A stretch of DNA of 64,000 bases, from contig DF820469.1 of assembly GCA_000739535.1 (NCBI GenBank), forward strand, positions 315,513 through 379,512, written 5' to 3'. Positions 590 through 51,712 of the stretch are shown piece by piece. The notes under the pieces are model-generated. The model worked only from the letters and a program-made list of their open reading frames with translations. It was not told the DNA's origin and did no database searches. The stretch is from Candidatus Vecturithrix granuli (GTDB lineage Bacteria; Moduliflexota; Moduliflexia; Moduliflexales; Moduliflexaceae). The translations under genes were made by a program, and so were the position numbers. How positions within the stretch are numbered: the stretch's first letter is position 1; each line of letters starts with the position of its first letter.

Positions 590-1088
590 CACAGGGGCGA
601 GAAGAACGAATGCCGAACAATCGCATGAACCGGACGTCAAAGGGGCGCAGGGGAAAATCATCTCAATCGTCACGTGCAGTGGCTGCACCCCTTTCACGCC
701 GGTGAAGCAGGGCGTTATCAAGATGGTTGGCATAGCGATAGCCATACTTTTTACGAGGCAATGGCTACAGGTGGTGAAACAAAAGTTGTAAATCTGATAA
801 TACATCCACAAAAAAAACCCCTTATGTCCATACCTGGGGTTCATTACTAATTCAAGATTTTAATAGAGGAACATATAACGATTGCGCGATTGTGGGAAGC
901 CTTAATCCATCAGCGTTTGCATTTCTGATCAAAACGGATTTCTGGGAAACCTACAGAAATCTGAGTCAATACGGTTGAGAGTCTTGTTTAGGAAAACCGT
1001 TGAATGATGAATATACCCCTGACTCAGGAAGAGGCCAGAGTCCTTATGCTATCGCGATTCAAGACTTCGAATATGGACATTTAGAGTA
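590..1088. other. Intergenic region with no supported gene
   Basis: About 500 bases between the end of the plus-strand anchor-D gene and the 3' end of the minus-strand EEP gene. No reading frame has a credible start or recognisable product. The only structured element is the hairpin at 811-842. Confidence 0.5.
811..842 (-). terminator. Intrinsic terminator, minus strand
   Basis: Read on the minus strand, AACCCC and GGGGTT arms (841-836 and 821-816) enclose a 14-base loop and run into a T tract formed by the A run at 811-817. It lies about 250 bases downstream of the minus-strand gene ending at 1089. The stem is short, so efficiency is uncertain. Confidence 0.45.
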
Positions 1089-2000
1089 TTATTCTGTCAC
1101 GCGAAAAGTTGAGATGATAGGGAGATGATCTGAAGCGGTGCTTTGAAGCACGCGGTGGTCAAGGAATTCCCAGGCGGCGGGGGCCAGGATAAAATCTATT
1201 TTCTGCTGCGGTTTGGAACTTGGGAATGTGAGCGGCCCGTTAAAAGCCCAGACGAACTGGCCGGTTTCGCGGAAAAGCTGCATGGGGGCTTCATGCGGCT
1301 GAGCGTTAAAATCGCCAGCGAGAATGGCCGGCCGACCTTTCAGATAGCCAAGAATCTGCTGTACCTGCACCAGGTTATTCTGCAAATTGTATGAATCGTT
1401 GTGAACTGATCCGAGCAAGATGTCTTCGCCTTTGATTGTCATTTTGCACCACAGGATGCGGCGGTTATTTTGAGTGACGTAAAAAGGCTTCCGTCCAACC
1501 AGCGAGGGGTTGGCTACCGTTTCCAGAGGCCAACGCGATAGAATGGCGTTGCCGCCCACAATCCGGTAAAAGGGCAGGCCGAAGTTATAGTTTTCCCCGA
1601 AAGCCCAGAACGGCATATCGGTTGCCTCGGCTAAAGTTGTAATCTGATTCACAGACGATGGTCCGCATTCAAAAATAGTTTCAGAGAGAAACACCAGGTC
1701 CGGTTGTTCCGCGTTGATGAGATCGGCGATTTGATGCAGACGTTTCAAGACCACCTCTTGCGCTGCAAACGAAATTCCGCCCTGATGGATAAATCCTTTG
1801 GCAATATTATAGGACATGATGGTGATTGTTGCGCCTTCAAATGGCGTTTGATTCGCAGCCGCCTGTGAAGTCTGCCCACTCAGCGGAATTTCATTATGCG
1901 CCAGCCACACTCCATTCACAACAAACAAGCCAATTCCCGCCACACAGATGACGAAGATAAGAAGACCCATCCACAGACCATATTTCAAGATTCGTCGCAT
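1089..2000 (-). CDS. Endonuclease/exonuclease/phosphatase-family protein, membrane-anchored
   Basis: A 303-residue protein with an N-terminal hydrophobic segment (residues ~8-30, GLLIFVICVAGIGLFVV), suggesting an inner-membrane anchor or uncleaved signal. The rest is an EEP (DNase I-like) fold: MSYNIAKGF (first Asn), LFLSETIF (metal-binding Glu), GSVHND, AGDFNAQP (catalytic Asp-x-Asn) and SDHLPI (Asp-His pair) appear in canonical order. Family members hydrolyse phosphodiesters in nucleic acids, phospholipids or inositol phosphates; the substrate cannot be told here. The ATG at 2000 follows a GGAGG ribosome-binding site. It is transcribed alone, about 60 bases downstream of the sigma-54 activator gene, so read-through is possible. 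Confidence 0.75.
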   Translation of the reverse strand: MRRILKYGLWMGLLIFVICVAGIGLFVVNGVWLAHNEIPLSGQTSQAAANQTPFEGATITIMSYNIAKGFIHQGGISFAAQEVVLKRLHQIADLINAEQPDLVFLSETIFECGPSSVNQITTLAEATDMPFWAFGENYNFGLPFYRIVGGNAILSRWPLETVANPSLVGRKPFYVTQNNRRILWCKMTIKGEDILLGSVHNDSYNLQNNLVQVQQILGYLKGRPAILAGDFNAQPHEAPMQLFRETGQFVWAFNGPLTFPSSKPQQKIDFILAPAAWEFLDHRVLQSTASDHLPIISTFRVTE

Positions 2001-2061
2001 TATTCCTCCCTTTTCCCCTCCGCATCGTTCGCTTCAAATAATTTTCTGAAAATCTATCGGA

Positions 2062-4083
2062 TCAGTTTTTTATTCCATATAAACGCATTTTGCGGTACAG
2101 GGTATTCCGAGATATCCCCAATTCATGCGCTGCCCGGCTCACATTGCCATGCTGCCGGTCTAACATCAGTGTAATTCGCTGTTTTTCGATCCTGGCGAGT
2201 TCGTGTTTGCGCGTATTTCTATCGGCAGAGGGACTGATATACGCCACAGATTCCAGGGGTTCACGGGCAGAAAGTTCCTCTGAAATGTCGTCTTCCTGGG
2301 GAAAATTGATCACGCGCAGTGTTTGATCCTCTGCCAGGCTGACCAGGCGTTCCACAAAACTCTTGAGTTCACGGATATTTCCGGGCCAACTGTAGTGTTG
2401 GATATACTCGAACACTTCCGGTTCTATGGTAAATTCTTTGCCTTGCAGGCTTTCATATCTTCTCAAAAAATGCGTAAACAGCAGCATGGCATCTTCACAG
2501 CGTTCTCGCAGCGGCGGGATCTGAATCGTGATGACATTCAAGCGATAATACAAATCATCGCGAAAGCGGCCGTTCATGACTTCGCGCAAAAGATGTTTGT
2601 TAGTAGCGCAAATCACGCGCACATCCACAGGAATCTCCTTGTTGCCGCCGACGCGGGTGATCTTGTTTTCTTGCAGCACGCGTAAGAGGGCGATTTGCTG
2701 CTCAAAAGGCATATCGCCGATTTCATCAAAAAAGAGCGTTCCACCAGAAGCGATTTCAAATTTGCCGACCTTTCCCCCTCGTTTTGCCCCGGTGAACGCG
2801 CCTTCTTCATATCCAAAGAGTTCACTGCTGATCAAATCCTTTGGGATTGCCCCGCAATTGACCGCCACAAAAGGGCCCTTCCTTCTTGGGCTGGCCTGGT
2901 GAATGGCCTGAGCAAAAATTTCCTTGCCGGTGCCGCACTCCCCCTGAAGCAATACAGTAGAGAGGCATTTCGCCGCTAATTGGGCAATGCGTTTCGCTTC
3001 TAAAATCCCAGAGTGATTGCCGATGACATCGGAGAAACTGTATGATGCGTTTCCGTAGCCGCCCGGAGTTTTATTTTTGACAATCTGCGGAGTTTTGTCA
3101 ATCGGTTTGAACATCACGATCCCGCCTGTCATATTGCCTGCTGCATCGCTAAAGGGTTCGCCGCAGAGAAAATAGGCTCTTCGAATCCCATGATAAGGCA
3201 AAGAACATTCATAGTTCAAACGGTTTGACCGTAATGCCGACATAATTGGTAAATCTTCCGATTTCCAGATTTCTTCAAAGAACTTTCCGATCATATCCGT
3301 TTCCGCTCGTTGCAGCAGGACGCTGGCAACGGAATTGGCGCGTTTGATCATGCCATGCGCATCGACTTCAATCATCCCGTCCGAGGCATGATTGAAAACC
3401 AGAGCAAAGCGTTTGTCAATCAATTGCAACTCCCGCGCCTTTTTTTCCAGGATTAATTGGATCGTCACGGCACTCGCGATGGCGGTGGCAAGACCTAAGA
3501 CCTGTTCATGGAAGGTTTGAGAGGGACCCGATATATCAATAATCCCCATCAGCATTCCCTGAGGATTGAAAATTGGCGCGGCCGAACAGGTCCACTGATG
3601 ATGTTTCTGGCAATAATGTTCGACCGCGGTCACATTGATCGGCTGCTGGAGTTGCAGTGAGGTGCCAATGGCATTGGTCCCGACTTCATTTTCGGTCCAA
3701 CGCGCGCCATCCATAAAATGAATTTTTTGCGCATTCTGAATCACCGGTTCATCGCCCAAAATAGCCAGAATATAGCCCAGTTTATCGGTCAACACAAATA
3801 CCACGCCCGTACCTTTTACAAACTGATAGTGATACTGGATGATCGGCATAGCGGTGTGGAAGAGTTCGTACTGTTCTTCCTTGGCCCGATTCAACTCGCG
3901 AGATTCAAGTATATGCTGACATTCTCCGCCCAGGGGATTGACACTGGCCTCATGACACCGTTTCCATGATTCAGCGATGGGCGGCTTAATCACTTCACAA
4001 TTGATCTCCCCTGATTGAAGATACTTTTTCCAGGCTAAGGCATAAGCTAAACTCGATGTCGGCAGACTTTTCTGACTCCCCAT
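2062..4083 (-). CDS. acoR: Sigma-54-dependent activator, AcoR-like (GAF-PAS-AAA+-Fis)
   Basis: The frame is open further upstream, but the ATG at 4083 ([10 protein letters not shown]) has a strong AAGGAGGT site 7 bases before it, whereas the ATG at 4188 has none; this gives 673 residues. Order: N-terminal GAF-type sensor, a PAS segment, then the sigma-54 AAA+ domain with Walker A GECGTGKE, the sigma-54-contacting GAFTGA loop, Walker [12 protein letters not shown] and a C-terminal Fis-type helix-turn-helix ([20 protein letters not shown]). This is the AcoR architecture: activators of acetoin or diol catabolism that sense the substrate in the GAF domain. It is divergent from the dehydrogenase operon, whose -24/-12 promoter at 4391-4407 is the obvious target. 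Confidence 0.88.
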
Positions 4084-4198
4084 ACCAGCAACCTCCTTGA
4101 ATGCGGCGTTGTCCTGTTTCACCTCAAACGTTCCGATCATTTTCAGCCCATAAAAGTTCTTTGAGGAATTGTCAATAGAAATTTTCATTGTAGCGAAC

Positions 4199-26428: not shown

Positions 26429-27853
26429 TCATGATTTGATGTGAATATCAGGCAGATCTTCAGAAAATTCACCGTCAATGAGCGCGATCTGTTTTCGCAC
26501 AATGCCGCGTTTTTCGAGGGCGGGCTTCAGGCAGAAGTTCTCAAAATCCTCTTTGCTAATATCCTCAGGCGATTTAACATGCGGAAACAGAAGTTTCAAA
26601 TAGCCTGACGCAAGCTTTGTAACAGCTTTCGTATCGCGTTTATCGGCATTCTGAGGCACAGCCATCAATTCACTGGCAATCAATGAGTAATCTGAGATAG
26701 ATCGAAGTGAATGCAGAATTTCAGAAAAATACTCAACGTTTAATGTATAACCTTTGATGGTCAAATCCTCATGAATTCTTTTCAGTTTCCACCCTTCTAT
26801 AAATCCGTGAAAACGATCTAACAGCGCTGATGATTGAAAAAATTGCGGCAGATTCGTAAAATATTTCTGATGAACAGGCTGATTATGATTGGATAAAGGG
26901 ATATTGCCTAACAGCATTAACCCGGCTAAAGAGGTACCTCGTGTATGAGCAACCGTAAACACCCCGCTTTCCAGATAGTTTTTCAAGGCCCCCTGCAACT
27001 CGTTCTCATCCGCAAATCTGATGGTTTCGATTTCATCCATCGAAATGCAGTCATAGTTAGTTATCAAGCCCATAGATTTTCGTGAGACATCATAAAACAA
27101 TTTCGCCCGTGTGACCGTGCCTCCGCTGATTAACCAGCCATATTTGCTGATATTGCCAAAAATATAGGATTTGCCGGTGCCCTTGGGCGCAAGTTCGATC
27201 ATATTCAGATTTGGCTCCACAAAGATTAACAGGCGGCTGATAAACAAAAGTTTTTGCGTGAAGCTGTCAAATCCATCCGGGTTGTATTCCATTGAACGAA
27301 TTAAGACATCAATCCACTCCGTCAGTGAAAATTCTTTGCGAACAGTCCGAAAATAGTCAACATCCACATCGTAGGGTTTGAACGGCTTAAAATTCACGAG
27401 TTCAATCGCGCCTTTTTCTTTGCCTTCAGGGGGAATATAGACCAGGGTAATCACGCCCCAGATTTCTCCTTCTCGGAGTTCTTTATGACGTTTGGCGACA
27501 TAATCCGGGATTCTGCCTTCATTCGCTTTAATACTCAAATCAGGAATCGAGAATCTGAGGGCGTTCTTTAAAATATCAATTTCGACAATAAAACGCGTTA
27601 AAATTGTGACTTCTTCGCCGTAAGTTCTCACTCTGTTTTTGATGTCGCTGTTTTTATGAGGAATATGTTCTTCCAGAAAAATAAGCAGTCCATGCGTATC
27701 AAGATTGCCCTGCTCATCCGTAAATTTTCGAATGAGCCAATCTTTGATAAAGGACGGTAAATTTTTGCCCGAAAAAATGCTGTAACGTTCAGGAATTTTA
27801 TAGACCGATTCATCAGGAAAATGGGTTCTAATTTTTTCATCCAATTGATTCAT
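26429..27853 (-). CDS. brxL: BREX system BrxL-type AAA+ protein
   Basis: The ATG at 27853 (MNQLDEKIRTHFPDESVYK) follows AGGGAG and overlaps the PglZ stop as ATGA, so the genes are translationally coupled; 474 residues. It contains the BrxL AAA+ core: ELAPKGTGKSYIFGNIS (Walker A, ~residue 215), CISMDEIETIRF (Walker B), and the GVFTVAHTRGTSLAGLMLLGNI and SALLDRFHGFIEGWKL segments. It is shorter than BrxL proteins of ~680 aa because no C-terminal Lon-like protease domain is visible; a shorter BrxL class of about this size is known. BrxL is a DNA-binding ring ATPase needed for phage exclusion in several BREX types. Confidence 0.85.
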   Translation of the reverse strand: MNQLDEKIRTHFPDESVYKIPERYSIFSGKNLPSFIKDWLIRKFTDEQGNLDTHGLLIFLEEHIPHKNSDIKNRVRTYGEEVTILTRFIVEIDILKNALRFSIPDLSIKANEGRIPDYVAKRHKELREGEIWGVITLVYIPPEGKEKGAIELVNFKPFKPYDVDVDYFRTVRKEFSLTEWIDVLIRSMEYNPDGFDSFTQKLLFISRLLIFVEPNLNMIELAPKGTGKSYIFGNISKYGWLISGGTVTRAKLFYDVSRKSMGLITNYDCISMDEIETIRFADENELQGALKNYLESGVFTVAHTRGTSLAGLMLLGNIPLSNHNQPVHQKYFTNLPQFFQSSALLDRFHGFIEGWKLKRIHEDLTIKGYTLNVEYFSEILHSLRSISDYSLIASELMAVPQNADKRDTKAVTKLASGYLKLLFPHVKSPEDISKEDFENFCLKPALEKRGIVRKQIALIDGEFSEDLPDIHIKS

Positions 27854-30240
27854 AATAACTCCCTTTCTTTGAAGCCGCCTGTCATTGTGAGGGTAAGATC
27901 GAACTTCTGGTCGAGCACCTGTAATTCGAATTGATATTCGCCCGCTTTGAACCCGCGCAGCAACACGCCCCAATGGTCATCCTGTTTTTCTAAAAGAAAT
28001 TCTTTGCCTTTCCAGAGTAAGACTGGTGCAGACGGTGGCAGCGGTGTGACGTCCACGAGCAGCAATGGCATGCGCACAGAAATTTCCGGCGTCAAGAGGT
28101 TGATATGATACGTAATTCGGTCATCAATCTTCGAAATCACCAGATAAGGGGTCACAACTTCTTCAGGGGTTGCGCCGCCATGTACCTCGCGCGCCGGAGT
28201 GGTATAGAGCGACGTATGTTTCAACGCCACCAGCGTTTTTTGGCCTTCATGCTCGCCATGCTGAATGGTGTGCACTAAGAAATCGCTGTCCGCTTGATGT
28301 TCCTGGTCAGTCCACAGACAGCGGCCTTCATGATCGGAGGCCTGGAAATCGTATTTTTTGAAATTCCCGAACCGTTTTTGCGCCAGAAAGGTACAGCCAT
28401 GATCAGAAACAACCACAATCCGTTCGTATGGATTTTCGATGATGTCGCGTTTTACAATGGCTTGCAGCAATTCGATTTGGCGGATCAAATCATCCGGGTA
28501 AGTATAAGGCTTTTCGTCGTGAATGTAGGCATCGAAGTCTCGAATGTATATTGCCTGTTCGAACCGGTTATGTTCCGTTGTCGTAGGTAAATTGGCCGTA
28601 CTCAGATAGGCTTTGGCGACATGTTTGTTTTTGGTTTGCCCATAGCTGTTAATCAGATAAATCAGCAAAGGCAGCCATTCGGCCCCTAAGCCGTCAATCC
28701 AGATCAGGCATGTGTTTCCGTCATGTTCCTGATGTTTGCCCAGGTGATAGTACCAGGCATAAAAACTGTTTTGATCTTGGTTTTTCTCGTTCAAAAGGGC
28801 TGTCAAAGTTTCGGTTTTGCAATCGAAGACTTTCGAGCGGGCATATTCCTGAAAATACGCCGGCAGCCAATCCTCTAGGGTCGGATTGTCCAGCATCACC
28901 TGCCAATGCAGATAATGAAATAATTCGGGATAGACCTGTCTGAGCAAAGCGTCATAGCGTTCTTGCTGGTCTGCGCCAATGGTTTTCAGGAGTTCGAAAA
29001 GATAGGTTCGCTCTGCATGCGAAATATTGGTCAGATATTGTGCTTGAACTTCCAAATGTTTCTCAACAAGTTCTGAGAGCGTATGACGCAACTTCTCTTC
29101 AAGAGAATGGTAGGGCAGTTTGTACTCCTCATGCAGCAGTTTCAGATAGGTTTTGCGTTCCGTAAAAATCTCGGCGTTTGATGGGGTGAATTCGAAAATA
29201 TCAAACCAGAGATGAGTGATCAGTTCATCGTCACTATAGAGGACGATGGCAGATATCATCTTGTAAAGATAGCCTATCTGTAAATGTGGCTGATTGAGCA
29301 CCCAATGCCGCAGCAACCAGCGACTGAAAGCATCAGGATATTGAAACCACAATTTTAATAAGCCTTCGGATGTCATGGCTCTGACATTCCGAATGTTAAA
29401 ATGCGTTGCGACAACATGATGAAAATCCACAAATCCGGCCTCATGCCTGTGTTTGCTTTCCTTGTGCAGCAAGGCGTCCCAAAATCGCGCTTCCTGGGGT
29501 TGATATGGCATCGGCAGCGCGACGCCCAGAATTTTTTCTAAATAGGCTTTGGGAGTGTCGATCGGTTCAGGCTGAAAAATGGCGTCAGGCAGGAAATCTT
29601 TATATAAATACGCCATTGAGCGGGATTTGCACACCACGGCTTGCAGCGGCGTATGTTTCCACAGGTCTAACCAATCCGATGTCGTACGGATGATGGTAAA
29701 ACCCGCTGGCGCAATATCAACTTCAACGCCTGTGTAAGCGACAAGCTGATAAATCCGAATTTTTTCTGCACGGTCTTCCTCGACGCTCCAGATCGGCGCT
29801 CAATGCCCGCGGCGATGAAAGGTTTTGAACACGTTGTTTTCACAGCGGCCTTTGAGGCCGACAAAGGGCAGATAGATCCGGCGGGACGCCTGTTCAGGAG
29901 CATTTTCAATTTCGAATAAACTGAGCAATAGGGACTGTAATTTACCATCCTGAAAAAATCGCACCACTTCGGACATGGGAACAATCAGGCTATCTGTTTC
30001 CTGAGATGCGACGATCCGGTACAGATCCTCTGAGGTGAGCCAGCCATCTTGATGCGGCAGACAGGATTTCAATTGAATGAGAGGGATTTTTGCTAAATGC
30101 GACGTCAGTTTTCGCAAGGCATGAAAGGTATTCAAGAAAATGAGGCGTACCGGATAGCGCACCGCCCCTGGAGATCGATCGTCTTTATCCTCCTCAATAG
30201 CGGCAAATAAGGCGTCATTGGATTGCAGATGAGTAATCAT
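27850..30240 (-). pseudogene. pglZ: PglZ alkaline-phosphatase-superfamily protein, interrupted by one in-frame TGA
   Basis: Two open stretches, 29800-30240 and 27850-29799, are in the same frame and separated only by the TGA at 29800-29802. Together they encode ~796 residues of a BREX PglZ. The context (FHRRGH-stop-APIWSVEEDRAEK) suggests a Trp or similar codon was lost. Downstream lie the PglZ phosphatase motifs WIDGLGAEWLPLL (metal-binding Asp) and VVVSDHG (Asp-His), then AREVHGGATPEEVVTPYLV. The ATG at 30240 has AGGTG nearby. PglZ is a core BREX protein, so loss of the full-length product would be expected to disable the system unless the stop is read through or translation restarts near 29610. 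Confidence 0.8.
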
Positions 30241-30246
30241 AACACC

Positions 30247-30663
30247 TCACATCCACTTTTCGATACGAAGCGGGAAAGAGTGTTGAATAACCTGATAATG
30301 CTTGACATTATTGGTGACGAGATTCATGCCATGAAAAAGGGCCGTTGCTCCGATGATCAGATCGAATTCTCCTGACAATTCTCCTTGCGGCTTGAGAACA
30401 CTATAAATATCTGCCGCTTTATCCAACACGCCCTGATCCACATACAGCACATCCGTTTTCTCAAGAAATTCGTGAAAGACTTGTAAACGTTTCGTAGCTC
30501 CGACAGCTTTATAGCCGCGCAAACATTCGTAATAAGTCAGACAACTGATTGTAAACCGGCCATAGTGCCTCAGATAAACTTGACTCCTCTGATAGAAGGG
30601 TTCTCGCTGTTTCAAGATATAACTCAACACATCCGTATCAATCAAACACAAAGCTTCGTTCAT
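30247..30663 (-). CDS. vapC: VapC-type PIN-domain toxin
   Basis: The 138-residue product begins MNEALCLIDTDVLSYILKQ, the PIN-domain opening with the first catalytic Asp. YYECLRG supplies the conserved Glu, ELSGEFDLIIGATALFHG the central acidic residues, and LVTNNVKHY the terminal conserved block. VapC toxins cleave tRNA or rRNA. The start overlaps the antitoxin gene by ~26 bases. It lies 6 bases before pglZ, inside the BREX-like cluster. Confidence 0.85.
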   Translation of the reverse strand: MNEALCLIDTDVLSYILKQREPFYQRSQVYLRHYGRFTISCLTYYECLRGYKAVGATKRLQVFHEFLEKTDVLYVDQGVLDKAADIYSVLKPQGELSGEFDLIIGATALFHGMNLVTNNVKHYQVIQHSFPLRIEKWM

Positions 30664-30895
30664 GATTGCGCTCCCGTTGGGTATAGATTTCATCAAGCAG
30701 CAGATCAGCTTCATCCATGATCGCCGTATATTTTTGAGTGATCTCGTTCAGCCAGGCGACCGGATCGTCTTGAGAGGGTTGCCAATCGATCACAATCACT
30801 TTGACGCGATGGTGCTGTAATGGGAACATGCTCTTTGGAAGCACAATGACGCCATCTTCCCGAATCGTTGAATCAAATTGATAGGTTTTGATCAT
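30638..30895 (-). CDS. VapB-like antitoxin
   Basis: The 85-residue protein starts MIKTYQFDSTIREDGVIVLP after AAAGGAG. The N-terminal part (REDGVIVLPKSMFPLQHHRVKVIVIDW) resembles a swapped-hairpin DNA-binding antitoxin, and the charged C-terminal helix (AIMDEADLLLDEIYTQRERNHE) would wrap the toxin. The overlap with the PIN toxin gene supports a type II toxin-antitoxin pair. Confidence 0.75.
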   Translation of the reverse strand: MIKTYQFDSTIREDGVIVLPKSMFPLQHHRVKVIVIDWQPSQDDPVAWLNEITQKYTAIMDEADLLLDEIYTQRERNHERSFVFD

Positions 30896-31580: not shown

Positions 31581-34031
31581 ATGGATTTGTTTAGCCAAAA
31601 CATGACATTGGAACAAAAAATATTTCACGCCTTATTTTTCGCGCCAACAGAAGATGCTGTTGATGAGGTGTTTCTCCAATACCCCCAAATCTTTCAAACC
31701 GATCAAAACTGGTATCCGCTCGGCGGGAATGAAAGTAATTTTGGCGTCATCGAAAATCAGTAATCCTCGCCAATTGCAGCCTTAATCGAAAAAATTACCA
31801 ATTCAATTGATGCCATTTTAATGAAAAAGTGCTATGAAGCGGGGATTGATCCGAAATCTCCAAAAGCTCCAAGATCAATTGAGGATGGAGTTGAACGCTT
31901 CTTTCCGGATTGGAAAAATTGGGATTTGTCTTCTTTTCGAAAAGCGCAGGCTGAGGAGATTCAAATTCTGGCAGATGGCCCCAAATTGATCCCTTCCCTG
32001 ATCGTTTATGATAATGGTGAAGGACAGCATCCTGAAGATTTTGAAGGCACGTTCTTATCTCTGTTGCGAGGCAATAAAAATGAGATTCACTTTGTTCAGG
32101 GGAAATATAACATGGGAGGCACCGGGGCAATCGTGTTTTGCGGGAAAAAACGCTATCACCTCATTGGGTCACGACGATTTGACGGAACCGGTAAATTCGG
32201 TTTCACCCTCATTAGAAAACACCCATTAAGCAGGCAAGAACAGCAAACGAAGAAAAACACCTGGTATGAATACTTAAAAATCAACAAACAGATCCCTGGC
32301 TTTGACATCACGGAGTTAGATTTAGGCTTGTATCATCGAAAATTTACAACCGGGACGCTTATCAAGCTGTATTCCTACGATCTGCCTACTGGGGCGCGCT
32401 CCGTGATTTCAAGAGATTTAAACCAGAGCATCAATGAATATCTGTTTGTGCCGGCTCTGCCGATTTACACGATTGATAAAAAAGAACGTTACCCCCAGGA
32501 CCGAGCGTTAGAACGGGAACTTTACGGATTAAAACGCCGACTTGAACAGGATGACAGCAAATACATTGAAGATTTCTTTTCCGAATCATATCAAGACCAA
32601 AAAATTGGTGGGATGAAAGTGACATGCTATGTCTTTAAGCCGAAAATCGAAGACAAAAGCATCAAAGAGAGTCGCGAAAGCATCAGGCGCGAATTTTTCA
32701 AAAATGACATGTCGGTGCTGTTTTCTGACAATGGCCAGGTTCACGCGCATTATACCTCCGAATTCATCACGCGTTCCTTACAATTCCCGCTGCTCAAAAA
32801 TCATTTGTTGATTCATGTGGATTGCACAAACATGCATCTTGAGTTTCGAAATGAATTGTTTATGGCGTCGCGCGACCGTTTAAAGGGTGGCGATGAAGCC
32901 CGCTATCTGCGTGAAAAGTTAGCGAATGTCTTGAAACGCAGCAAATTAAAAGAGATCAACAAACACCGTAAAGAAGCCATTACCGTTGAAGGCGGGGAAG
33001 CACAAGACCTGCTGAAATCCCTGACCAAAAACCTCCCGCTGAACGAAGACTTGCTCAAACTGTTGAGTCAAACCTTTAAATTGGAACAAAAGAAAAAAGA
33101 ACCGCCGAAAACGCATGAGAAGAAACATGAAAGAGCGCAAGAAGAAAAAGAGCCTTTTGTCGGAAAACGGTTTCCAACTTATCTCAGATTAACTAGGCAC
33201 ACTGATGACGCAAAGCCTATCGCTCAGATTCCGATTGGCGGGGAACGAACCATTCGGCTTTTAACCGATGTCGAAAATCAATACTTTGATCGAATTGAAG
33301 ATCCGGGTGAATTTGAAGTGGCGTTGTTAAATATCAAACGTAATGAGGTGACTGGCGGAGATCAGGCAGGTACGCCGCGCGAAATTTCGGAAGTGTTTAA
33401 TGTGGTCAAAACAAGTCCGAATAATGGCGTAATCAAGGTCTTATTGAATCCAACGGACGTCGTTCAGGTTGGCGATGCGGTTGAAATACAAGCATCGTTA
33501 GCCGGAGCAGGTGAAACCTTTGAAGAAATCTTTTGGGTCAAAATCAGCGAGCCGGAACAAAAACCCGAACCCAAAAAGGAAAAAGAAGTTGAAGATGATC
33601 GCCTCGGGCTGCCAAAGCATATCCTGGTGTATAAGGAAGCAAGAGAAAATGTGATCACGTGGGAGAAAATGGAGAGCGAAGGAATCGAAATGGAGTGGAA
33701 AACGGTCATGCACCCCTATATTGAAGGCGAGACGCTGGAATCCATCTATATCAACATGGATAGCACCGTGTTGAAAAACTATAAATCCAAACTGAAATCT
33801 GAAGAACAATATCAATTAGCCGACAAACGCTATATCTCCACCGTCTATTTTCATACGCTTTTCCTTTATTCCATCAATAAAAACCGACAATACGCCATGA
33901 AATGCCTCGAAGGTGAAGACGAAAAAGAGGTTGATTTGACCGAATACCTCAAAGATGTGTTTGAGAGCTACTATTCGGCGTTCTTGCTGAATTTCGAGAT
34001 CAGCGAATTGATAGAAAGTCTGGATGTATAG
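31581..34031 (+). pseudogene. GHKL (Hsp90-like) ATPase, interrupted by one in-frame TAA
   Basis: The ATG at 31581 (MDLFSQNMTLEQK) after AGAGG opens a frame that continues to 34031 except for TAA at 31761-31763. The stop lies in FGVIENQ-stop-SSPIAAL, just before the GHKL N-box (IEKITNSIDAI), and a single C-to-T change in CAA would create it. The rest is intact: DNGEG (G1 box), YNMGGTGAIVF (G2 box), a middle domain, a Lys/Glu-rich linker (EQKKKEPPKTHEKKHE) and a C-terminal region, ~816 residues in all. GHKL ATPases of this size work as dimeric clamps and occur in defence islands. Plus strand, facing the PIN/ATPase operon. Re-initiation at 31821 would lack the catalytic N-box. Confidence 0.75.
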
Positions 34032-34034
34032 ACA

Positions 34035-34676
34035 TTAAGCGGCTAATTGGTTGGGAGTGATAATTTCATGCATCCAATGGCGGTTGGTGGTCACATGGTC
34101 TGCTCTGACATATTTGGCGATATTCTGCTGAAAATCCTCAAACTTAAAATGATTGGCGTTTCTGACAACATACCCTTCCTGCTCTTTCCCAAAGACTGAT
34201 TTTCCTGTCCAACATGCTTTAATTGCCGCTTCATCCCATTTCCCGCGGTATAAGACCGGAACCGTTTCTAAACCGAGGAGTTGACACCATTCCACGGTAT
34301 CGTCCCAACTGAGACAGACATCCTCCTGAAAAATGGCGAATACGTAGAAATAGGTGGTCAGGGCATCGTAAAAGATGCTGTGTTTCGCGTATAAATTTTC
34401 ACCGCAAATTCTGACATCCTGGGGAATATCGTGTTTGAGGCCGGCATGAAAGTGTTTGATCCAATCTCTGGAGGGATGGGATTTGGAATCAAGGCTGCGG
34501 GCATGCAGGTAATCGTGGTAGAGCGTGGTGTTTTCACCATCCAATTTTTCAGTGACAACAATATCGTCTAAGCATTGAAGTTGTTCGATGGAATTTAAGG
34601 CAATGTCATCTTCTAATCTTCCAAACGACCAGGATAAATGAGGTATGCGAGGAAATTTCTTTCGTTTTGTCTTCAT
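34035..34676 (-). CDS. RNA ligase-family protein
   Basis: The ATG at 34676 (MKTKRKKFPRIPHLSWSFGR) is preferred over an upstream TTG; 213 residues. It has a complete covalent nucleotidyltransferase set: motif I TEKLDGENTTLY (AMP-accepting Lys), ICGENLYAKHSI (motif III), YFYVFAIF (IIIa), KEQEGYVVRN (IV) and NIAKYVRADHV (V, Lys). This is the adenylation core of Rnl2-type RNA ligases without a large C-terminal domain. Such enzymes seal broken RNA. It follows the PIN nuclease gene with two bases between its ATG and that stop, suggesting a linked cut-and-repair or self-protection role. Confidence 0.75.
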   Translation of the reverse strand: MKTKRKKFPRIPHLSWSFGRLEDDIALNSIEQLQCLDDIVVTEKLDGENTTLYHDYLHARSLDSKSHPSRDWIKHFHAGLKHDIPQDVRICGENLYAKHSIFYDALTTYFYVFAIFQEDVCLSWDDTVEWCQLLGLETVPVLYRGKWDEAAIKACWTGKSVFGKEQEGYVVRNANHFKFEDFQQNIAKYVRADHVTTNRHWMHEIITPNQLAA

Positions 34677-34678
34677 GC

Positions 34679-35518
34679 CTATATTTTCCAAACATGGTCA
34701 TTTTCAATAGCTTTCTGTCGGTCGTCAATATATTTAATCTTCACTCCAATATCAGATTCTAAAAAATCTCCAAAAAGTTGGGCAAATTTCTTTTCAGCGC
34801 GTTTAATTTTTACAACATTAGGATCCCTTTCTAATTCCCGTAACTTTAGAACATCGTTATTTTTGATATACTCGGAAAGTGTAGAAAGGGTATGCTGAAT
34901 TGGTGGACTATCTCGTATCTTCCTCATGGTTTCAATTTCATCGATTAAAGGGCTTATTTTGCTATTATACAAGGCTTTTAATGAAATACAAAAATTCAAA
35001 ATTTCTTTTTTTGAAATATATTCTTTCAAGTAACAAAGAATTACGATGTCTATTGAATCAAGGAATTGTCCTATTTGATTAATCCTAACAAAATCTCCAA
35101 AATCATCTTTGGCAATATCATCATCAGAGACAAAGCAGGTTTTTAGTACATTTTCATTGAGTTTAATTTCTCCCATGCGGCTTAAATACAGAGATAAAGC
35201 AATTGAATAAAACTCCCCATTATCTTTCGTATATTTTGTAACAGTTTTTAGAAAACCACAGAACTCATCAACATCTTCATATGTAGTGAATTGCGGGATA
35301 TATGAACTGATAAGATTATCTAAATCATCTTTCAGTTTTGCAAGTTCACTTTTTTCCTTCGCATAAAGATTATCATACTTGTTGTCATTGACTTCTTCAA
35401 AAACCTTTGGATGAATGACAATCTGATCGAACAACCTTTGAAGGTGTTCAATATATTTTCCATCAAAAACACTCTGCAATAGGTTAAGTATTGTACAAGC
35501 ATCAACAACAGCTATCAT
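34679..35518 (-). CDS. PIN-domain nuclease-like protein with C-terminal extension
   Basis: The 279-residue protein starts MIAVVDACTILNLLQ. PIN-like acidic residues are in order: Asp6, Glu41/Glu42 (HPKVFEEVND), Glu102 (GEFYSIALSLYL) and the SDDDIA block at 131-136. Residues ~170-279 form a helical extension (KEILNFCISLKALYN, LRELERDPNVVKIKRAEKK) that VapC toxins lack. The gene is strongly AT-rich. It overlaps the upstream ATPase by four bases (ATGA) and abuts the RNA ligase gene. Probably the nuclease effector of the four-gene cassette; the substrate is unknown. Confidence 0.7.
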   Translation of the reverse strand: MIAVVDACTILNLLQSVFDGKYIEHLQRLFDQIVIHPKVFEEVNDNKYDNLYAKEKSELAKLKDDLDNLISSYIPQFTTYEDVDEFCGFLKTVTKYTKDNGEFYSIALSLYLSRMGEIKLNENVLKTCFVSDDDIAKDDFGDFVRINQIGQFLDSIDIVILCYLKEYISKKEILNFCISLKALYNSKISPLIDEIETMRKIRDSPPIQHTLSTLSEYIKNNDVLKLRELERDPNVVKIKRAEKKFAQLFGDFLESDIGVKIKYIDDRQKAIENDHVWKI

Positions 35519-36705
35519 GCTTCACCTTCCCATGAAATGATTTCTTCTTTGATAGAATTCACGAATTCAATAGACAGTGTTTCAACTTCTTGTATTAACG
35601 CAAGTTCCAAAATAATAGAAAATACTTCGTTGATTTTTCTCATAGATAATCTGCCGATATTTCTCAAAACATATTTCACAATATCTTCAGAAAAAGGATA
35701 CAAATTATTTTCATTATTAACATCTTCTTTATCTCTGAAAACCGGGTGATTCAACAAAACTTCTAAATAATCTATTGATTCTTCAAGAGTTGGTTCGGCA
35801 AAATAGATTTTTAATCGAGCTCTGCTTAATAATGCCTCGCCCAAGTAAATTGATAAATCTTCAATATTCAAAAACCTCTTCGGGGTAAAATTAAGAAAAA
35901 TTGTTAAATGATTGGGAGTTTTATCTATGAGTTGCCTTAAAAAAGTTGTAAAACGGTCAGCAGCAGATTTATTAACAGTATCAATATCCTCAAATTCATC
36001 GATCCAAAGAAAAATCTCCGAATATATTTTCTTTTCGTATGAAAGACAATTGAACATCGTACTGAGCAAATTCACAACCTGTTCATCATCCTCAATTATT
36101 CCGGTAGGAAAATTTAGAGAGGTCAAGGTCGCCTTGGTTTTGTCGCCATAGAGGTAATTTTTTATATCATCTATTTTTTCTTGATCAGGAATTCCCAAAT
36201 CCATTGAAATTTGAGTTTGATTCTTCTTATTTAAATAAATTGTGGCAATTTCTGTGAAAAGTTCTGCTACGATACTATCATTTGCGTTGACATTTATAAT
36301 CCTCTTGTAATCAGATGGGAATAATTGTCTCAGCCGATTGAAATCTTTTACAATAAAATCAAATTCAATTTGCCCCAATAACGCTCTCCAAAAAGCTTGC
36401 ACAATATCTTTAGACGCTCGTGGCAAATTTACCTTGATACTCTTAGCCGGGGCGACAGAAATTTCATCAGATAATTCTTTTAATCGGGGAGTTCTGGAAA
36501 AATAATTTGCTGCATGTGTTTTGCCACTGCCATAGTTCCCCCAATTAATGATGATACGAGAAGCAGAAGTTCGCATTGACATTCTGATTCTATTTTCGAG
36601 CTCCGTTTTCAGTTTATCCATTCCAGCCCAAATAATTTCCTCTGGATTAAGTGGAGGGGTTAAGCGAAAAGGATTTTCTTTAAGTTTAAAGCTGTTATAT
36701 TCCAT
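35515..36705 (-). CDS. P-loop ATPase (ORC/AAA-like) of the AT-rich cassette
   Basis: The 396-residue protein opens MEYNSFKLKENPFRLTPPLN. Walker A GNYGSGKTH spans residues 56-64 and Walker B IFLWIDEFEDID lies near residue 240. Later segments (LTIFLNFTPKRF, SRARLKIYFAEPTLEESIDYL, IGRLSMRKINEVFSIILELA) match the sensor and lid regions of ORC/Cdc6-like AAA+ ATPases. It is translationally coupled to the PIN gene (ATGA overlap) and starts two bases after the 592-aa gene, so the three form one tight operon. Similar ATPases act as switches that couple recognition to nuclease action. Confidence 0.78.
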   Translation of the reverse strand: MEYNSFKLKENPFRLTPPLNPEEIIWAGMDKLKTELENRIRMSMRTSASRIIINWGNYGSGKTHAANYFSRTPRLKELSDEISVAPAKSIKVNLPRASKDIVQAFWRALLGQIEFDFIVKDFNRLRQLFPSDYKRIINVNANDSIVAELFTEIATIYLNKKNQTQISMDLGIPDQEKIDDIKNYLYGDKTKATLTSLNFPTGIIEDDEQVVNLLSTMFNCLSYEKKIYSEIFLWIDEFEDIDTVNKSAADRFTTFLRQLIDKTPNHLTIFLNFTPKRFLNIEDLSIYLGEALLSRARLKIYFAEPTLEESIDYLEVLLNHPVFRDKEDVNNENNLYPFSEDIVKYVLRNIGRLSMRKINEVFSIILELALIQEVETLSIEFVNSIKEEIISWEGEA

Positions 36706-36707
36706 GA

Positions 36708-38486
36708 TTATCTCCTTTTTTGTAGTGAACCATCTTGCTCTTTTGCATACCAGTCAAGACTGAATTTTAGATTTTGCCTATTTTCTAAAAATTTCTTTAC
36801 TTCTGTAAATTCTATAATACAAGAATCTTTTAGCAAAAATTTATAACAAACGTAATAGATTGCTTGAAAAGCTGAGATACTATTAGGCGCGATTGTTTTG
36901 AAATATTTGAAACTTTCATCAAGGTAAATCCCAATTTGTCCAGAAAGTTCTTGTGTATAGCTTCTAAAATTTAAATTATAAATGTTATTGATAATCTGAA
37001 AGTAATGGTTTTGAATGATAAAATCTATCATTGTAGATTTCTGTAAAAACATATCATAAAATGAGATTAAAATATTAAAAAGTGTTTGGCCTGAATTGGA
37101 GAGTTTAAGTGATTTTTGATCAAAAGCTTGAGAATCTAATAAATCTAAATCTAAAAGCCAGTTTATACGTGGTTCGATAACATGAGGAAGATATTTATCG
37201 GGCTGCCATTTTCTGATTCTCTGAATAATTTGTAAAATTTTCTTCCTATCAATATTGGGTAACTGCAAAAGCTTTTTCAATTTATCACCTTTTCCAGGAT
37301 CACCAAATCCTGGAAATTCGAGGACATCTGTATCATTAAGTTGCCGATATAATTCATTCAAGATGTATTGCTGGAATTCTTGCTTGATCTCCTCTATCCA
37401 ACTTCCTTCTTGAAGATAGATCATCTCTATCAACGCCTCAAAATACAATGCGTCTTTTAACAGAATTTGATGAAGAAAAAACGCCTTCTCAAAAACCGTC
37501 AGTTCAAAAGGATTGTCTTTTTTTAAAAGAGGATACTGTCCAAATACATCGAATTGAGTGATAAATTCATTTATATTCCTTTTTAATTGGGTATTGATGA
37601 CACGATAAATTTTACTCTGCTTTGTTAAAATATATGACCTATTAATTTGAGTAATCAAAGCTAAATTCTCAGTCAAGTCTATATAAGGTTTTGCAGAAAT
37701 TCCACTTTTAGATGTTTCAATTACCCCTTTGTCATTTTTATACGATGACAAAAATTGTCTTATTGTTTTGGCTTTTTGTTCCACTTTGTGAGAAAAATAA
37801 TCTAACGGATAATAATCAGATTCTTCAAAAAGATCTAAAATTAATTTTAAGTACCCAAGCCTTCGAGATTTTGTGTTCGATGGTAAAATTTCACTGACTT
37901 TTAGGGTTTTCCATAATTTGTTATTTGGATTCTGTAGATAATATAATTTTAAAAATTCAACATTTTTGAAATCTTCATAATTTAGAATAGTTTCTTTGAG
38001 CAGATAGATAAATTGCACTGTTGTTTGATCAAACGCGTTACCTAAAAAAATATCAAAATACGCATTTTCGCCCGGACACATTTCATAATACTGAATATCT
38101 CTTTTATATTGAGGTAGTTTATGAAATAGTCTCCAAAATATTCTTAAAACAGTATATAATTCAAGTGACAAATTATAAGTTACGCTTATGTCATCTTTTT
38201 CTTTGTCCACTTCAAAAACGGGATATGATATTATCTTACGAAGGTTAACACTATGGATTGCTATTTTGGAAAGAACTTCAGTATCTTCTAAAAAACTATC
38301 AGCATTTATAGACTTAACATACTCTACATCTCTTTTTTCAATATTTAAAACAATGAAATAGTCAGAGAAATTTGATTTAGATTTTAATACATCTATCCAT
38401 AATCCGGGTTCGCCGTAAGCATCCTGATCAAAATAGACCTGCCCACTGGAAAAAGTACGTAAATATTGAATTTCTTCAGAAGTCAT
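36708..38486 (-). CDS. Uncharacterised 592-aa protein of the AT-rich cassette
   Basis: No family is recognised. The 592-residue protein (MTSEEIQYLRTFSSGQVYFD) is rich in Tyr, Phe, Ile, Lys and Asn. It has an N-terminal alpha/beta part, a long helical middle (IRQFLSSYKNDKG, AFFLHQILLKDALYFEAL) and, near residue 440-490, a winged-helix-like segment (IEPRINWLLDLDLLD, then LKLSNSGQTLFNIL). The C-terminal third is helical. The base composition is visibly more AT-rich than the BREX core genes. The ATG at 38486 lies one base from the target duplication of the IS element. Without the IS it would follow brxP by 21 bases. A DNA- or protein-recognition role is a guess. Confidence 0.65.
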   Translation of the reverse strand: MTSEEIQYLRTFSSGQVYFDQDAYGEPGLWIDVLKSKSNFSDYFIVLNIEKRDVEYVKSINADSFLEDTEVLSKIAIHSVNLRKIISYPVFEVDKEKDDISVTYNLSLELYTVLRIFWRLFHKLPQYKRDIQYYEMCPGENAYFDIFLGNAFDQTTVQFIYLLKETILNYEDFKNVEFLKLYYLQNPNNKLWKTLKVSEILPSNTKSRRLGYLKLILDLFEESDYYPLDYFSHKVEQKAKTIRQFLSSYKNDKGVIETSKSGISAKPYIDLTENLALITQINRSYILTKQSKIYRVINTQLKRNINEFITQFDVFGQYPLLKKDNPFELTVFEKAFFLHQILLKDALYFEALIEMIYLQEGSWIEEIKQEFQQYILNELYRQLNDTDVLEFPGFGDPGKGDKLKKLLQLPNIDRKKILQIIQRIRKWQPDKYLPHVIEPRINWLLDLDLLDSQAFDQKSLKLSNSGQTLFNILISFYDMFLQKSTMIDFIIQNHYFQIINNIYNLNFRSYTQELSGQIGIYLDESFKYFKTIAPNSISAFQAIYYVCYKFLLKDSCIIEFTEVKKFLENRQNLKFSLDWYAKEQDGSLQKRR

Positions 38487-38497
38487 ATTATTCTCAC

Positions 38498-39726
38498 TTC
38501 ACTTCCTTACGTTTTTTATAAGAACCTGTTGACAGAAAGGCTCGCTGTTTGATCAACGATTTGGTTATGACCAATTTTACACGATGTACCAATATGCTCA
38601 TCACCGTGTTGGTTGATCTTGATCTTCGGCTGTCGCTCCCGCTTCGCCGCCTGATCGCCACCGTCATGGCGTGTCTTCTAGAAGGCACCGATGCGCATCT
38701 CAGCGATCTTGCGGAAGCCTTGCCTGATATTGAGAGCGACCAGGGCACCAAAGAGCAACGTCTCCGACGATTACTCTCACATCCCGAACTGTCGCCGCAA
38801 CGCTTTTTGCCAGCGTATCTCCGGCTCCTCTCACCGATCCTGCAACGACTGCCCGAACTTGTCCTCTCGATGGATCGCACCCACTGGAAAAAGCGCAAGC
38901 GCCATGTCAATATCCTCATGGTCGCGGTGCATTTTCAGGGGCGCGCCATCCCGCTCTATTGGACCGTCCTGGACCGGGCGGGCAATTCCGGGATTGCCGA
39001 ATGGAAGACCGTCCTTCGTCCGGTGATCACCGCAATCCGGGCGACGCCGGCCCTCGCACACCATCCCCTCATCGTCGCTGCCGATCGGGAGTTTGCCTCA
39101 CCCCAACTCGCCGAATGGCTCCACCAGACCTTCGCCGTCGACAGTGTCCTCCGCGTGAAACGGAGCGAATACCTGTGCGATCAGACCCATGACATCACGC
39201 TCGCCGACCTCGTGGCGTTCTTACCGCAGGGGGAGACGCGGTATGATCACCGGGTGACGGTCACGAAAACGAGTACCTGGCTGGTGAATGTGACCATCAC
39301 CTGGGCGGTGGATGCCCAGGAACCGCTCCTGGTTCTGAGTACCTTGACCGGCGCGGCGTTGTCGTTGGCCACCTATCAGCGACGCTTCGGCATCGAACCG
39401 ATGTTCAAAGATCAGAAAACCACGGGGTTCACCATCGAACAGACCAAAGTGACCGACCCGAAACGGATCGAAACCCTGTTGATCCTCACGACCTTCGCCC
39501 ATATTCTGTGCACGACCGAAGGTGATCGGCAAGAACAGCAGGGCGAGATCAAAAAAAATGGTATCGCCGTGCCTTCGTTCGCCCTCGCGGGCTCTTTCTT
39601 GTTGGCCTCATCGCCTTTAAGCAAGCCATTCGTCAAGCGAGTTCCCGAGTCTTTACACAATTTATCCACTGCTTATCACGTTTTATGGTACAACCATTGA
39701 AGTTATAAAAAGTGTAAGGAAGTGAA
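38498..39726. mobile_element. IS4-family insertion sequence, 1229 bp, complete
   Basis: Inverted ends TTCACTTCCTTACGTTTTTT (38498-) and, on the opposite strand from 39726, TTCACTTCCTTACACTTTTT match over ~24 bases with three mismatches. The element is flanked by the 10-base direct duplication TTATTCTCAC (38488-38497 and 39727-39736), typical of IS4-family target duplications. It encodes one intact transposase. It separates brxP from the 592-aa gene. Confidence 0.93.
38549..39700 (+). CDS. IS4-family DDE transposase
   Basis: The ~383-residue product shows the DDE acidic residues in SMDRTHWKK, AADREFASPQ and the YQRRFGIEPMFKDQK block, the last being the IS4 Y-R-E-K-type signature around the catalytic Glu. 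The start is TTG at 38549 after AAAGG; an ATG at 38567 is the alternative. The reading frame is uninterrupted and GC-richer than the host cassette, consistent with recent arrival and possible activity. Confidence 0.9.
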   Translation: MINDLVMTNFTRCTNMLITVLVDLDLRLSLPLRRLIATVMACLLEGTDAHLSDLAEALPDIESDQGTKEQRLRRLLSHPELSPQRFLPAYLRLLSPILQRLPELVLSMDRTHWKKRKRHVNILMVAVHFQGRAIPLYWTVLDRAGNSGIAEWKTVLRPVITAIRATPALAHHPLIVAADREFASPQLAEWLHQTFAVDSVLRVKRSEYLCDQTHDITLADLVAFLPQGETRYDHRVTVTKTSTWLVNVTITWAVDAQEPLLVLSTLTGAALSLATYQRRFGIEPMFKDQKTTGFTIEQTKVTDPKRIETLLILTTFAHILCTTEGDRQEQQGEIKKNGIAVPSFALAGSFLLASSPLSKPFVKRVPESLHNLSTAYHVLWYNH

Positions 39727-39746
39727 TTATTCTCACAAGAATAAAT

Positions 39747-40856
39747 TTAAACAAAACACGCTACACATCCTTCAAGTTCACTCTCATCCAACAAAATATC
39801 TAACAACTTATTCGATTTTTTCATGTTACATGCTCTTGTCGTTTTCGTCAAGTATTCTTCCTTGATTCGTTGCATCCGTTCTGGTTTCACTAAATCTTCC
39901 AGCCTTTCTCCTTCATTCCAGGTGTATCCACTTTTTTCGTATTCTTGAGCTTTCTCAAATAGATCGAGGTGCTGTTCATAAAGCCAAATCCACTCGATTT
40001 TTTGCTGGAAAAAGCAGAAATAACAGCCGGAGCGGCTCCGGAAATAGGTTCCTTTTTGTCCATTGATGGCGAGGGGGAGTTCGGTGTAGTATTTTGGTTT
40101 ACCGACGCCGCTCTCCTCTAATAAACGAAACACATCTTCCCGTCCTAATACATCCTGATTGTCAAGCAGCGGAAAATCTGCGACCGCGCCCAACGGGTAT
40201 GGCGTGGTTTTCAAAAATTCAAAGACCACCTGATTAAAGAGGGACACATTGAGGTCAAGCAATGCGCGTAATTTCTGGTCCTGATCAAAATCGAACGATA
40301 CCGGGTATTTGGCAACTTCGAGCAACATGTTCCGTTTTTTGCCGTTGGCAAGCTGGCAATAAATTTCGACAAGCGATTCAAGGTTGTCGTTGTTCAAAAC
40401 TTTGTCAATCACCTCTTCACTCCAAATATTTTTCCGAAACGGATAGATCGTTTGAATATTGGGCTTGTGCGAAACATAGCCCTCTCGATCCTCGTCGCCG
40501 CGAATGGCGACATAGGAGACAGTCGGATCATTGCCAACAAAGGCTTCGAAGGGTTCCAGTTTCAGATGGCGCGTACACCAACGGGCTTGTTTCGAGGGCA
40601 GATAGCCGCCATAACGGGCTAAAAAATGATCAAACGGGTCAACCGGGCTATCTTTGACGGCGCGTAACTGCAAGATTTTCTGTCCTAAATACACTTCCAG
40701 ATTGTTGATGAACTCATAAGTTTCATCAAGTTCCTTGCCGGTATCTGCAAAATAATACTCTATTTCCAATGTCGGATAGGTGTTTTTCAGATAAATGGCT
40801 AAGGCCGCGCTATCTTTCCCGCCGGAAATGCCGAGCACATGGCGAATTTTATTCAT
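39747..40856 (-). CDS. brxP: PAPS reductase/DndC-like protein (BrxP type)
   Basis: The 369-residue protein carries the PP-loop ATP pyrophosphatase motif SGGKDS (residues 11-16), FADTGKELDETYEFI, ARWCTRHLK, and clustered cysteines (RSGCYFCFFQQKIEW and a C-terminal EGCVACFV) that could hold an iron-sulfur cluster or shuttle sulfur. The family includes DndC/SspD of DNA phosphorothioation and the PAPS-reductase-like protein that replaces the PglX methylase in BREX type 4. The ATG overlaps the end of the BrxC-like gene. It probably activates DNA or sulfur for self-marking; no methyltransferase is present in the cluster. Confidence 0.82.
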   Translation of the reverse strand: MNKIRHVLGISGGKDSAALAIYLKNTYPTLEIEYYFADTGKELDETYEFINNLEVYLGQKILQLRAVKDSPVDPFDHFLARYGGYLPSKQARWCTRHLKLEPFEAFVGNDPTVSYVAIRGDEDREGYVSHKPNIQTIYPFRKNIWSEEVIDKVLNNDNLESLVEIYCQLANGKKRNMLLEVAKYPVSFDFDQDQKLRALLDLNVSLFNQVVFEFLKTTPYPLGAVADFPLLDNQDVLGREDVFRLLEESGVGKPKYYTELPLAINGQKGTYFRSRSGCYFCFFQQKIEWIWLYEQHLDLFEKAQEYEKSGYTWNEGERLEDLVKPERMQRIKEEYLTKTTRACNMKKSNKLLDILLDESELEGCVACFV

Positions 40857-51449: not shown

Positions 51450-51712
51450 ACCCCACCCCCGGTCCCATACGCAGCAAGCTAACGGTTTTCGTCCTGGAAG
51501 GACGGTTGAGAATAGCCCACCGTTTCAACGGTGGGGGAGCATGACGGGGCATTGATGAGTCCCGTAGGGAGGACTGACGGCGAAACTCAGTCGTCCCTAC
51601 GGGACTCTCTCAATTGATCTCCCTTCCCCACCGTTTCAACGATGGGCTATTCTCACCTGTCCCACCGGGACAAAGAACGTTAACTTGATATGCATAGGGC
51701 CGGGGGTGAGGT
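51450..51712. repeat. Composite inverted-repeat cluster
   Basis: The outer arms CCACCCCCGGTCCC and GGGCCGGGGGTGAGG enclose two further inverted pairs: GCCCACCGTTTCAACGGTGG with CCACCGTTTCAACGATGGGC, and GTCCCGTAGGGA with TCCCTACGGGAC. The gap from 51344 to 51723 has no gene; the first 100 bases hold only the leader of the binding-protein gene. Confidence 0.7.

What the first reader, a model, noticed from the sequence alone, without database searches (positions are those of the whole stretch)
34035..38486. Candidate undescribed defence module: 592-aa protein, ORC-like ATPase, PIN nuclease and RNA ligase in one tight operon
Three AT-rich genes overlap or abut (2-base gap, then ATGA overlap) and an RNA ligase with a full adenylation motif set follows two bases later. 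A recognition-size unknown protein, an ATPase switch, a nuclease and an RNA-sealing enzyme form a logical abortive-infection or RNA-targeting system. It sits inside a BREX type 4-like cluster and its composition differs from the BREX core. I do not recognise this gene combination as a named system. Function is inference; gene content and spacing are seen.
Basis: partly seen in the sequence, partly recalled or inferred. Interest (0 to 1): 0.88.

Follow-up and report, generated by a model that had tools for sequence, protein, structure and literature searches.

The report
Phosphorothioation operon with ATPase-nuclease trio
Three AT-rich genes (a probable DNA-recognition protein, an ATPase and a likely nuclease) sat at the end of an operon that puts sulfur marks on DNA, and the same trio occurs in a second, unrelated genome; they look like an undescribed effector arm of sulfur-mark-based anti-virus defence, while the RNA ligase beside them is probably a bystander.

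Summary
(1) The block is not free-standing: it was the tail of an sspB-sspC-sspD phosphorothioation operon (Ssp/BREX-4 type). An IS with a 10-bp target duplication now splits it off; before that, the 592-aa start lay 21 nt after sspD. (2) The conserved unit is three genes, not four. A second genome (G501) carries sspD - 592-like - PIN-like - ATPase - sspB - sspC - cysteine desulfurase, with no ligase on that contig. Thiomargarita nelsonii has the ATPase-PIN pair twice, without ligase. (3) The ligase has ordinary base composition (44% GC against 29-33%), belongs to a widespread family and was found with no other copy. The PIN call rests on four acidic motifs conserved in four homologues, not on a profile or structure match; the 592-aa protein is an unclassified, fast-evolving protein, perhaps DNA-binding. 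Best reading: a rare, apparently undescribed effector module coupled to phosphorothioate marking, in which the ATPase and 592-aa protein license the PIN-like nuclease. Defence function and substrate are untested.

The parts
36708..38486 (-). 592-aa protein (P0004): no family match; its core (about residues 203-571) is homologous to a 369-aa protein in the G501 sspBCD operon; the first 200 residues are an extra N-terminal part
   Evidence: BLASTP 24% identity, E 8e-21 to P0012; no Pfam, PADLOC, NCBIfam or PHROG match
35515..36705 (-). 396-aa ORC/BrxD-like AAA+ ATPase (P0003)
   Evidence: Walker A/B, sensor-1 Asn and a candidate Arg finger invariant in four homologues; weak BrxC_BrxD/BrxD matches; 56% identical to the T. 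nelsonii homologue
34679..35518 (-). 279-aa PIN-like protein (P0002), putative nuclease
   Evidence: D6, E42, E102, D132/D133 motifs conserved in four homologues; only sub-threshold PIN_6 and PDC-S70 matches
39747..40856 (-). SspD-type PAPS-reductase-like sulfurtransferase; directly upstream of the 592-aa gene before IS insertion
   Evidence: PADLOC SspD E 1.8e-94, PF01507
40849..44088 (-). SspC/BrxC-type ATPase
   Evidence: PADLOC SspC 1330 bits
44078..44950 (-). SspB (DUF4007)
   Evidence: PF13182 E 1e-79; PADLOC SspB E 1.8e-109
38498..39726 (+). Insertion sequence (transposase ORF 38549-39700, DDE_Tnp_1) that split the operon; target duplication TTATTCTCAC at 38488-38497 and 39727-39736
34035..34676 (-). 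RNA ligase (218 aa from TTG, shorter from ATG): adjacent, probably co-transcribed, but not a conserved member of the module
   Evidence: PF09414 E 1.6e-38; GC3 48%; absent at G501 and both T. nelsonii loci
26429..30240 (-). BREX-4-type PglZ (two fragments: 29800-30240 and 27850-29637) and BrxL (26429-27973): cluster context
   Evidence: NF033445 E 7.5e-126, TIGR02688 E 1.5e-146; PglZ N-terminal fragment

Best explanation
The 592-aa protein, the ORC-type ATPase and the PIN-like protein form a three-gene effector module that was encoded at the 3' end of an sspBCD (Ssp/BREX-4) phosphorothioation operon. Proposed action: SspB, SspC and SspD, with a cysteine desulfurase encoded elsewhere, mark host DNA with phosphorothioate; the 592-aa protein engages DNA and reads its status; the AAA+ ATPase assembles on DNA as a nucleotide-driven switch; and the PIN-like nuclease is licensed to cut when unmarked or invading DNA is met. 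Shown: gene order, the operon as it was before IS insertion, linkage of all three genes to sspBCD in two genomes, conserved ATPase motifs and conserved PIN-type acidic residues. Inferred: DNA sensing by the 592-aa protein, ATPase gating, nuclease activity, the role in defence, and whether the substrate is DNA or RNA. The RNA ligase is a neighbour of separate origin. In this genome the IS cuts the module off from the 5' part of its operon, so it may be poorly expressed.
For: Pre-insertion operon reconstructed from the target duplication: 592-aa ATG 21 nt after the sspD stop. Independent locus G501/L088: sspD - 592-like - PIN-like - ATPase - sspB - sspC - cysteine desulfurase, with 592-like starting 23 nt after sspD; BLASTP E 8e-21, 0.004 and 2e-46 for 592, PIN-like and ATPase. 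ATPase-PIN pair also at two T. nelsonii loci. Distant relatives of the ATPase are linked to a transglycosylase gene in 27 of 30 haloarchaeal loci, i.e. again beside a putative DNA-modification gene. Literature: 84% of 2,678 sspBCD loci had no known restriction partner (PMC8092258); Orc/Cdc6 ATPases and PIN nucleases are recurrent around phosphorothioation and BREX genes (PMC10853773, PMC12839542).
Against: Only two sspBCD-linked copies are known. The T. nelsonii genome gave no match to the one SspC model tried and none to the 592-aa protein, so the ATPase-PIN pair can exist without either; neither search is proof of absence. The PIN assignment is motif-level only. Structure models failed. No function has been tested, and nearby pglZ and GHKL genes are interrupted, so this copy may be in decay.
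Confidence: 0.5

Rival explanations
1. A self-contained ATPase-controlled PIN ribonuclease (abortive-infection or toxin-like) that settles in defence loci as a backup effector and does not read phosphorothioate marks.
For: ATPase-PIN pair without detectable sspBCD or 592-like gene in T. nelsonii; PIN endoRNases are described as backup effectors in BREX loci (PMC12839542); AT-rich composition points to separate arrival of the block.
Against: The complete trio lies inside the sspBCD operon in two genomes, in G501 between sspD and sspB, and before IS insertion it was the tail of the same operon here.
Confidence: 0.28
2. The reader's four-gene system including the RNA ligase, an RNA-cutting and RNA-sealing defence unit.
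For: The ligase follows 2 nt after the PIN-like gene on the same strand and carries a full adenylation domain (PF09414).
Against: No ligase beside the homologues in G501 or T. nelsonii; different composition; relatives in 56 plasmid records, and in the three inspected none lies beside this ATPase or PIN family; a truncated second copy elsewhere in this genome stands without the module.
Confidence: 0.1
3. A transposition-related AAA+ ATPase (TniB/TnsC-like) with accessory genes, i.e. remains of a mobile element rather than an effector.
For: The G501 ATPase passes Pfam's TniB cut-off (25.1 bits against 22.4).
Against: No cognate transposase gene was seen beside any of the four loci; the IS in the window is a separate element with its own target duplication.
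Confidence: 0.05

Closest known systems
SspABCD-SspFGH phosphorothioate defence (PMC8092258)
   Same: Three-gene module next to sspBCD, with one Walker-A protein
   Different: SspH has an FtsK/SpoIIIE-like C-terminus; none of the three proteins here has such a domain, and a PIN-like protein is present instead
BREX type 4 (PMC12839542)
   Same: DUF4007, BrxC/SspC, PAPS reductase, PglZ and BrxL in the same cluster
   Different: The trio is extra to the core as that paper describes it; PIN endoRNases are mentioned there as occasional backup effectors, without this gene set in the text read
Haloarchaeal transglycosylase-linked ATPase loci (L002, L003, L055-L082)
   Same: Distant full-length relative of the ATPase, encoded after a transglycosylase gene and a ~300-aa protein
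   Different: About 20% identity; no PIN-like or 592-like gene detected there
Orc/Cdc6-centred operons in the Dnd reappraisal (PMC10853773)
   Same: Orc/Cdc6 ATPase coupled to a nuclease, sometimes with a multi-winged-helix protein
   Different: Those described use REase and HerA/FtsK partners; no PIN partner in the passages read

Membership tests
Ssp / BREX-4 phosphorothioation core | SspB (DUF4007), SspC and SspD adjacent in one operon | tested here: met
Ssp / BREX-4 phosphorothioation core | PglZ and BrxL of BREX-4 type nearby | tested here: met
   NF033445 and TIGR02688; pglZ is interrupted
Ssp / BREX-4 phosphorothioation core | Phosphorothioate in genomic DNA | not testable with these tools
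   needs mass spectrometry of DNA
SspFGH | SspH with FtsK/SpoIIIE-like C-terminus | tested here: not met
   no such Pfam match in the three proteins
SspFGH | Direct sequence homology to SspF, SspG and SspH | not tested
   those sequences were not fetched; PADLOC gave no Ssp hit for the trio, but whether it holds F, G, H models was not checked
PIN-domain nuclease | Four conserved acidic residues in PIN order | tested here: met
   D6, E42, E102, D132/D133 in four homologues
PIN-domain nuclease | Significant profile or fold match | tested here: inconclusive
   PIN_6 E 0.084; hhalign to the window's VapC-type PIN nil; model pLDDT 46
ORC/BrxD-like AAA+ ATPase | Walker A, Walker B, sensor 1 | tested here: met
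   invariant in four homologues
   absent at G501 and both T. nelsonii loci

The most novel reading that the evidence does not exclude
The trio is a new restriction arm of phosphorothioate-based defence in which an ORC-type ATPase and a DNA-reading partner unleash a PIN nuclease, possibly against RNA, when unmarked DNA is present: a modification system that answers foreign DNA with RNA cleavage.
Probability: 0.25. Interest if true: 0.75.

Novelty: new variant of a known kind. Interest (0 to 1): 0.5.

Why it matters
About 84% of sspBCD loci surveyed in PMC8092258 had no known restriction partner. This gives a concrete, testable candidate partner with a nuclease type not described as an Ssp effector in the papers read here. 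It also shows that one ATPase family recurs beside phosphorothioation genes in bacteria and transglycosylase-linked loci in haloarchaea.

Tried and rejected
Single-protein searches with the 592-aa, ATPase or PIN-like protein found no close relatives in viral contigs, phages, plasmids or related genomes; the plasmid search gave only weak haloarchaeal ATPase hits, and these made the alignment that found T. nelsonii. Later alignment scans of viral contigs were empty. AlphaFold models of the PIN-like protein (2 sequences, pLDDT 46) and the 592-aa protein (1 sequence, pLDDT 34) were too poor for a fold search, so none was run. hhalign of the 592 family against SspB and the haloarchaeal 300-aa protein gave nothing; PDB profile searches gave only noise. 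Three SspC loci in other genomes lack the module. L044 pairs a related ATPase with a 696-aa protein that looked PIN-like to the eye, but Pfam found nothing in it, so it is not used as evidence.

Full report
What was checked. The four ORFs are present as described. The 592-aa gene (36708-38486), ATPase gene (35515-36705) and 279-aa gene (34679-35518) are intact, closely spaced and strongly AT-rich (GC3 24-29%, against 52 +/- 6% for 36 other window genes). The RNA ligase (34035-34676) lies 2 nt further on but has ordinary composition (GC3 48%).

Surroundings. Upstream on the same strand are SspB (DUF4007), SspC and SspD. Downstream are PglZ and BrxL of BREX-4 type. Between sspD and the 592-aa gene lies a DDE_Tnp_1 insertion sequence with terminal inverted repeats (TTCACTTCCTTAC...) and a 10-bp target duplication, TTATTCTCAC at 38488 and 39727. 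Reading across the duplication, the 592-aa start codon was 21 nt after the sspD stop, so the three genes were the 3' end of one sspBCD operon. No sigma-70-like site was found in the IS region, which is weak evidence; current expression is uncertain.

Relatives. Single-sequence searches gave no close relative. An alignment of the ATPase with two haloarchaeal relatives, used to scan a collection of 84,980 species genomes, found Candidatus Thiomargarita nelsonii: an ATPase 56% identical and, 3 nt downstream, a protein 39% identical to the 279-aa protein, followed by an unrelated gene on the other strand. That contig starts 382 bp before the ATPase; no 592-like coding lies in that stretch, and a search of that genome with the 592-aa protein was empty. 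A profile search of 233 genomes around it found a second T. nelsonii ATPase with an interrupted PIN-like gene upstream, a broken ATPase in G404, and G501.

G501 is the key locus (L088): sspD (BrxP-like, cut by the contig end) - 369-aa homologue of the 592-aa protein - PIN-like - ATPase - sspB - sspC - cysteine desulfurase. BLASTP against the window proteins gives ATPase 28% (E 2e-46), 592 core 24% (E 8e-21), PIN-like 19% (E 0.004), SspB 28% and SspC 24%. The two SspD proteins are not recognisably similar by BLASTP, so the trio accompanies two different sspBCD lineages. No ligase is on that 10-kb contig. The organism behind G501 is not named by the tools.

The proteins. The ATPase has Walker A and B, a sensor-1 Asn and a candidate arginine finger invariant in four homologues; the G501 member passes Pfam's TniB cut-off and a haloarchaeal member matches BrxC_BrxD. 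The PIN assignment rests on four acidic motifs (VDxC, E, GE, DD) aligned in four proteins, not on a significant profile or a model. The 592-aa protein has no family match. Parts of its core read like winged helices by eye (inference; HTH_45 E 0.047, below cut-off, for the homologue), and its first 200 residues are absent from the G501 homologue.

Haloarchaeal cousins. In 27 of 30 haloarchaeal loci the ATPase relative follows a transglycosylase gene and a ~300-aa protein; two of the other three begin at a contig end and one (L059) lacks both. The link to the window protein is by profile (E about 1e-21 to 1e-25). Reading these loci as DpdA-type DNA modification is from general knowledge of the family, not tested here.

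Ligase. Relatives occur in 56 plasmid records. Of three inspected, one is paired with an AAA ATPase that does not match the module's ATPase profile and two stand without one. A truncated second copy elsewhere in this genome has no module beside it.

Assessment. Because the complete set occurs twice inside sspBCD operons, the most likely role is an effector or restriction arm of phosphorothioate-based defence. The count is small, the ATPase-PIN pair also occurs apart from sspBCD, and no activity has been shown. The family is rare: in about 1,900 genome searches run in stages with different queries, only the window genome, T. nelsonii, G404 and G501 gave clear matches; weak hits in other genomes looked like generic AAA ATPases. 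I found no description of the set in the papers searched, but supplementary tables could not be read and most subscription papers are not held.

Noticed in passing
window 27850-30240, minus strand: pglZ is split: 29800-30240 matches PglZ residues 5-145 and 27850-29637 matches from about 204 on, in another frame. Real decay or a sequencing error cannot be told apart here.
   Followed up: partly
window 31581-34031, plus strand: A GHKL-type ATPase gene (HATPase_c_3, weak) convergent with the ligase has an in-frame TAA at 31761-31763 that cuts off its N-terminal part, including a likely N-box stretch (EKITNSIDA).
   Followed up: partly
window 30247-30714, minus strand: A separate VapC-type PIN domain protein (PF01850 E 2.8e-14) next to pglZ; unrelated by hhalign to the PIN-like protein of the trio.
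   Followed up: partly
window 51490-51535, minus strand: Rfam match to Acido-Lenti-1 RNA (48 bits, gathering 37).
   Followed up: no
L044 (G090:C200) 907-4149: A 696-aa protein with a PIN-like stretch by eye, directly upstream of a distant relative of the ATPase; Pfam found no domain in the 696-aa protein.
   Followed up: partly
L002, L003, L055-L082: Haloarchaeal transglycosylase - 300-aa protein - BrxD-like ATPase array in 27 of 30 loci, annotated only as hypothetical or BREX ATP-binding in the plasmid records.
   Followed up: partly
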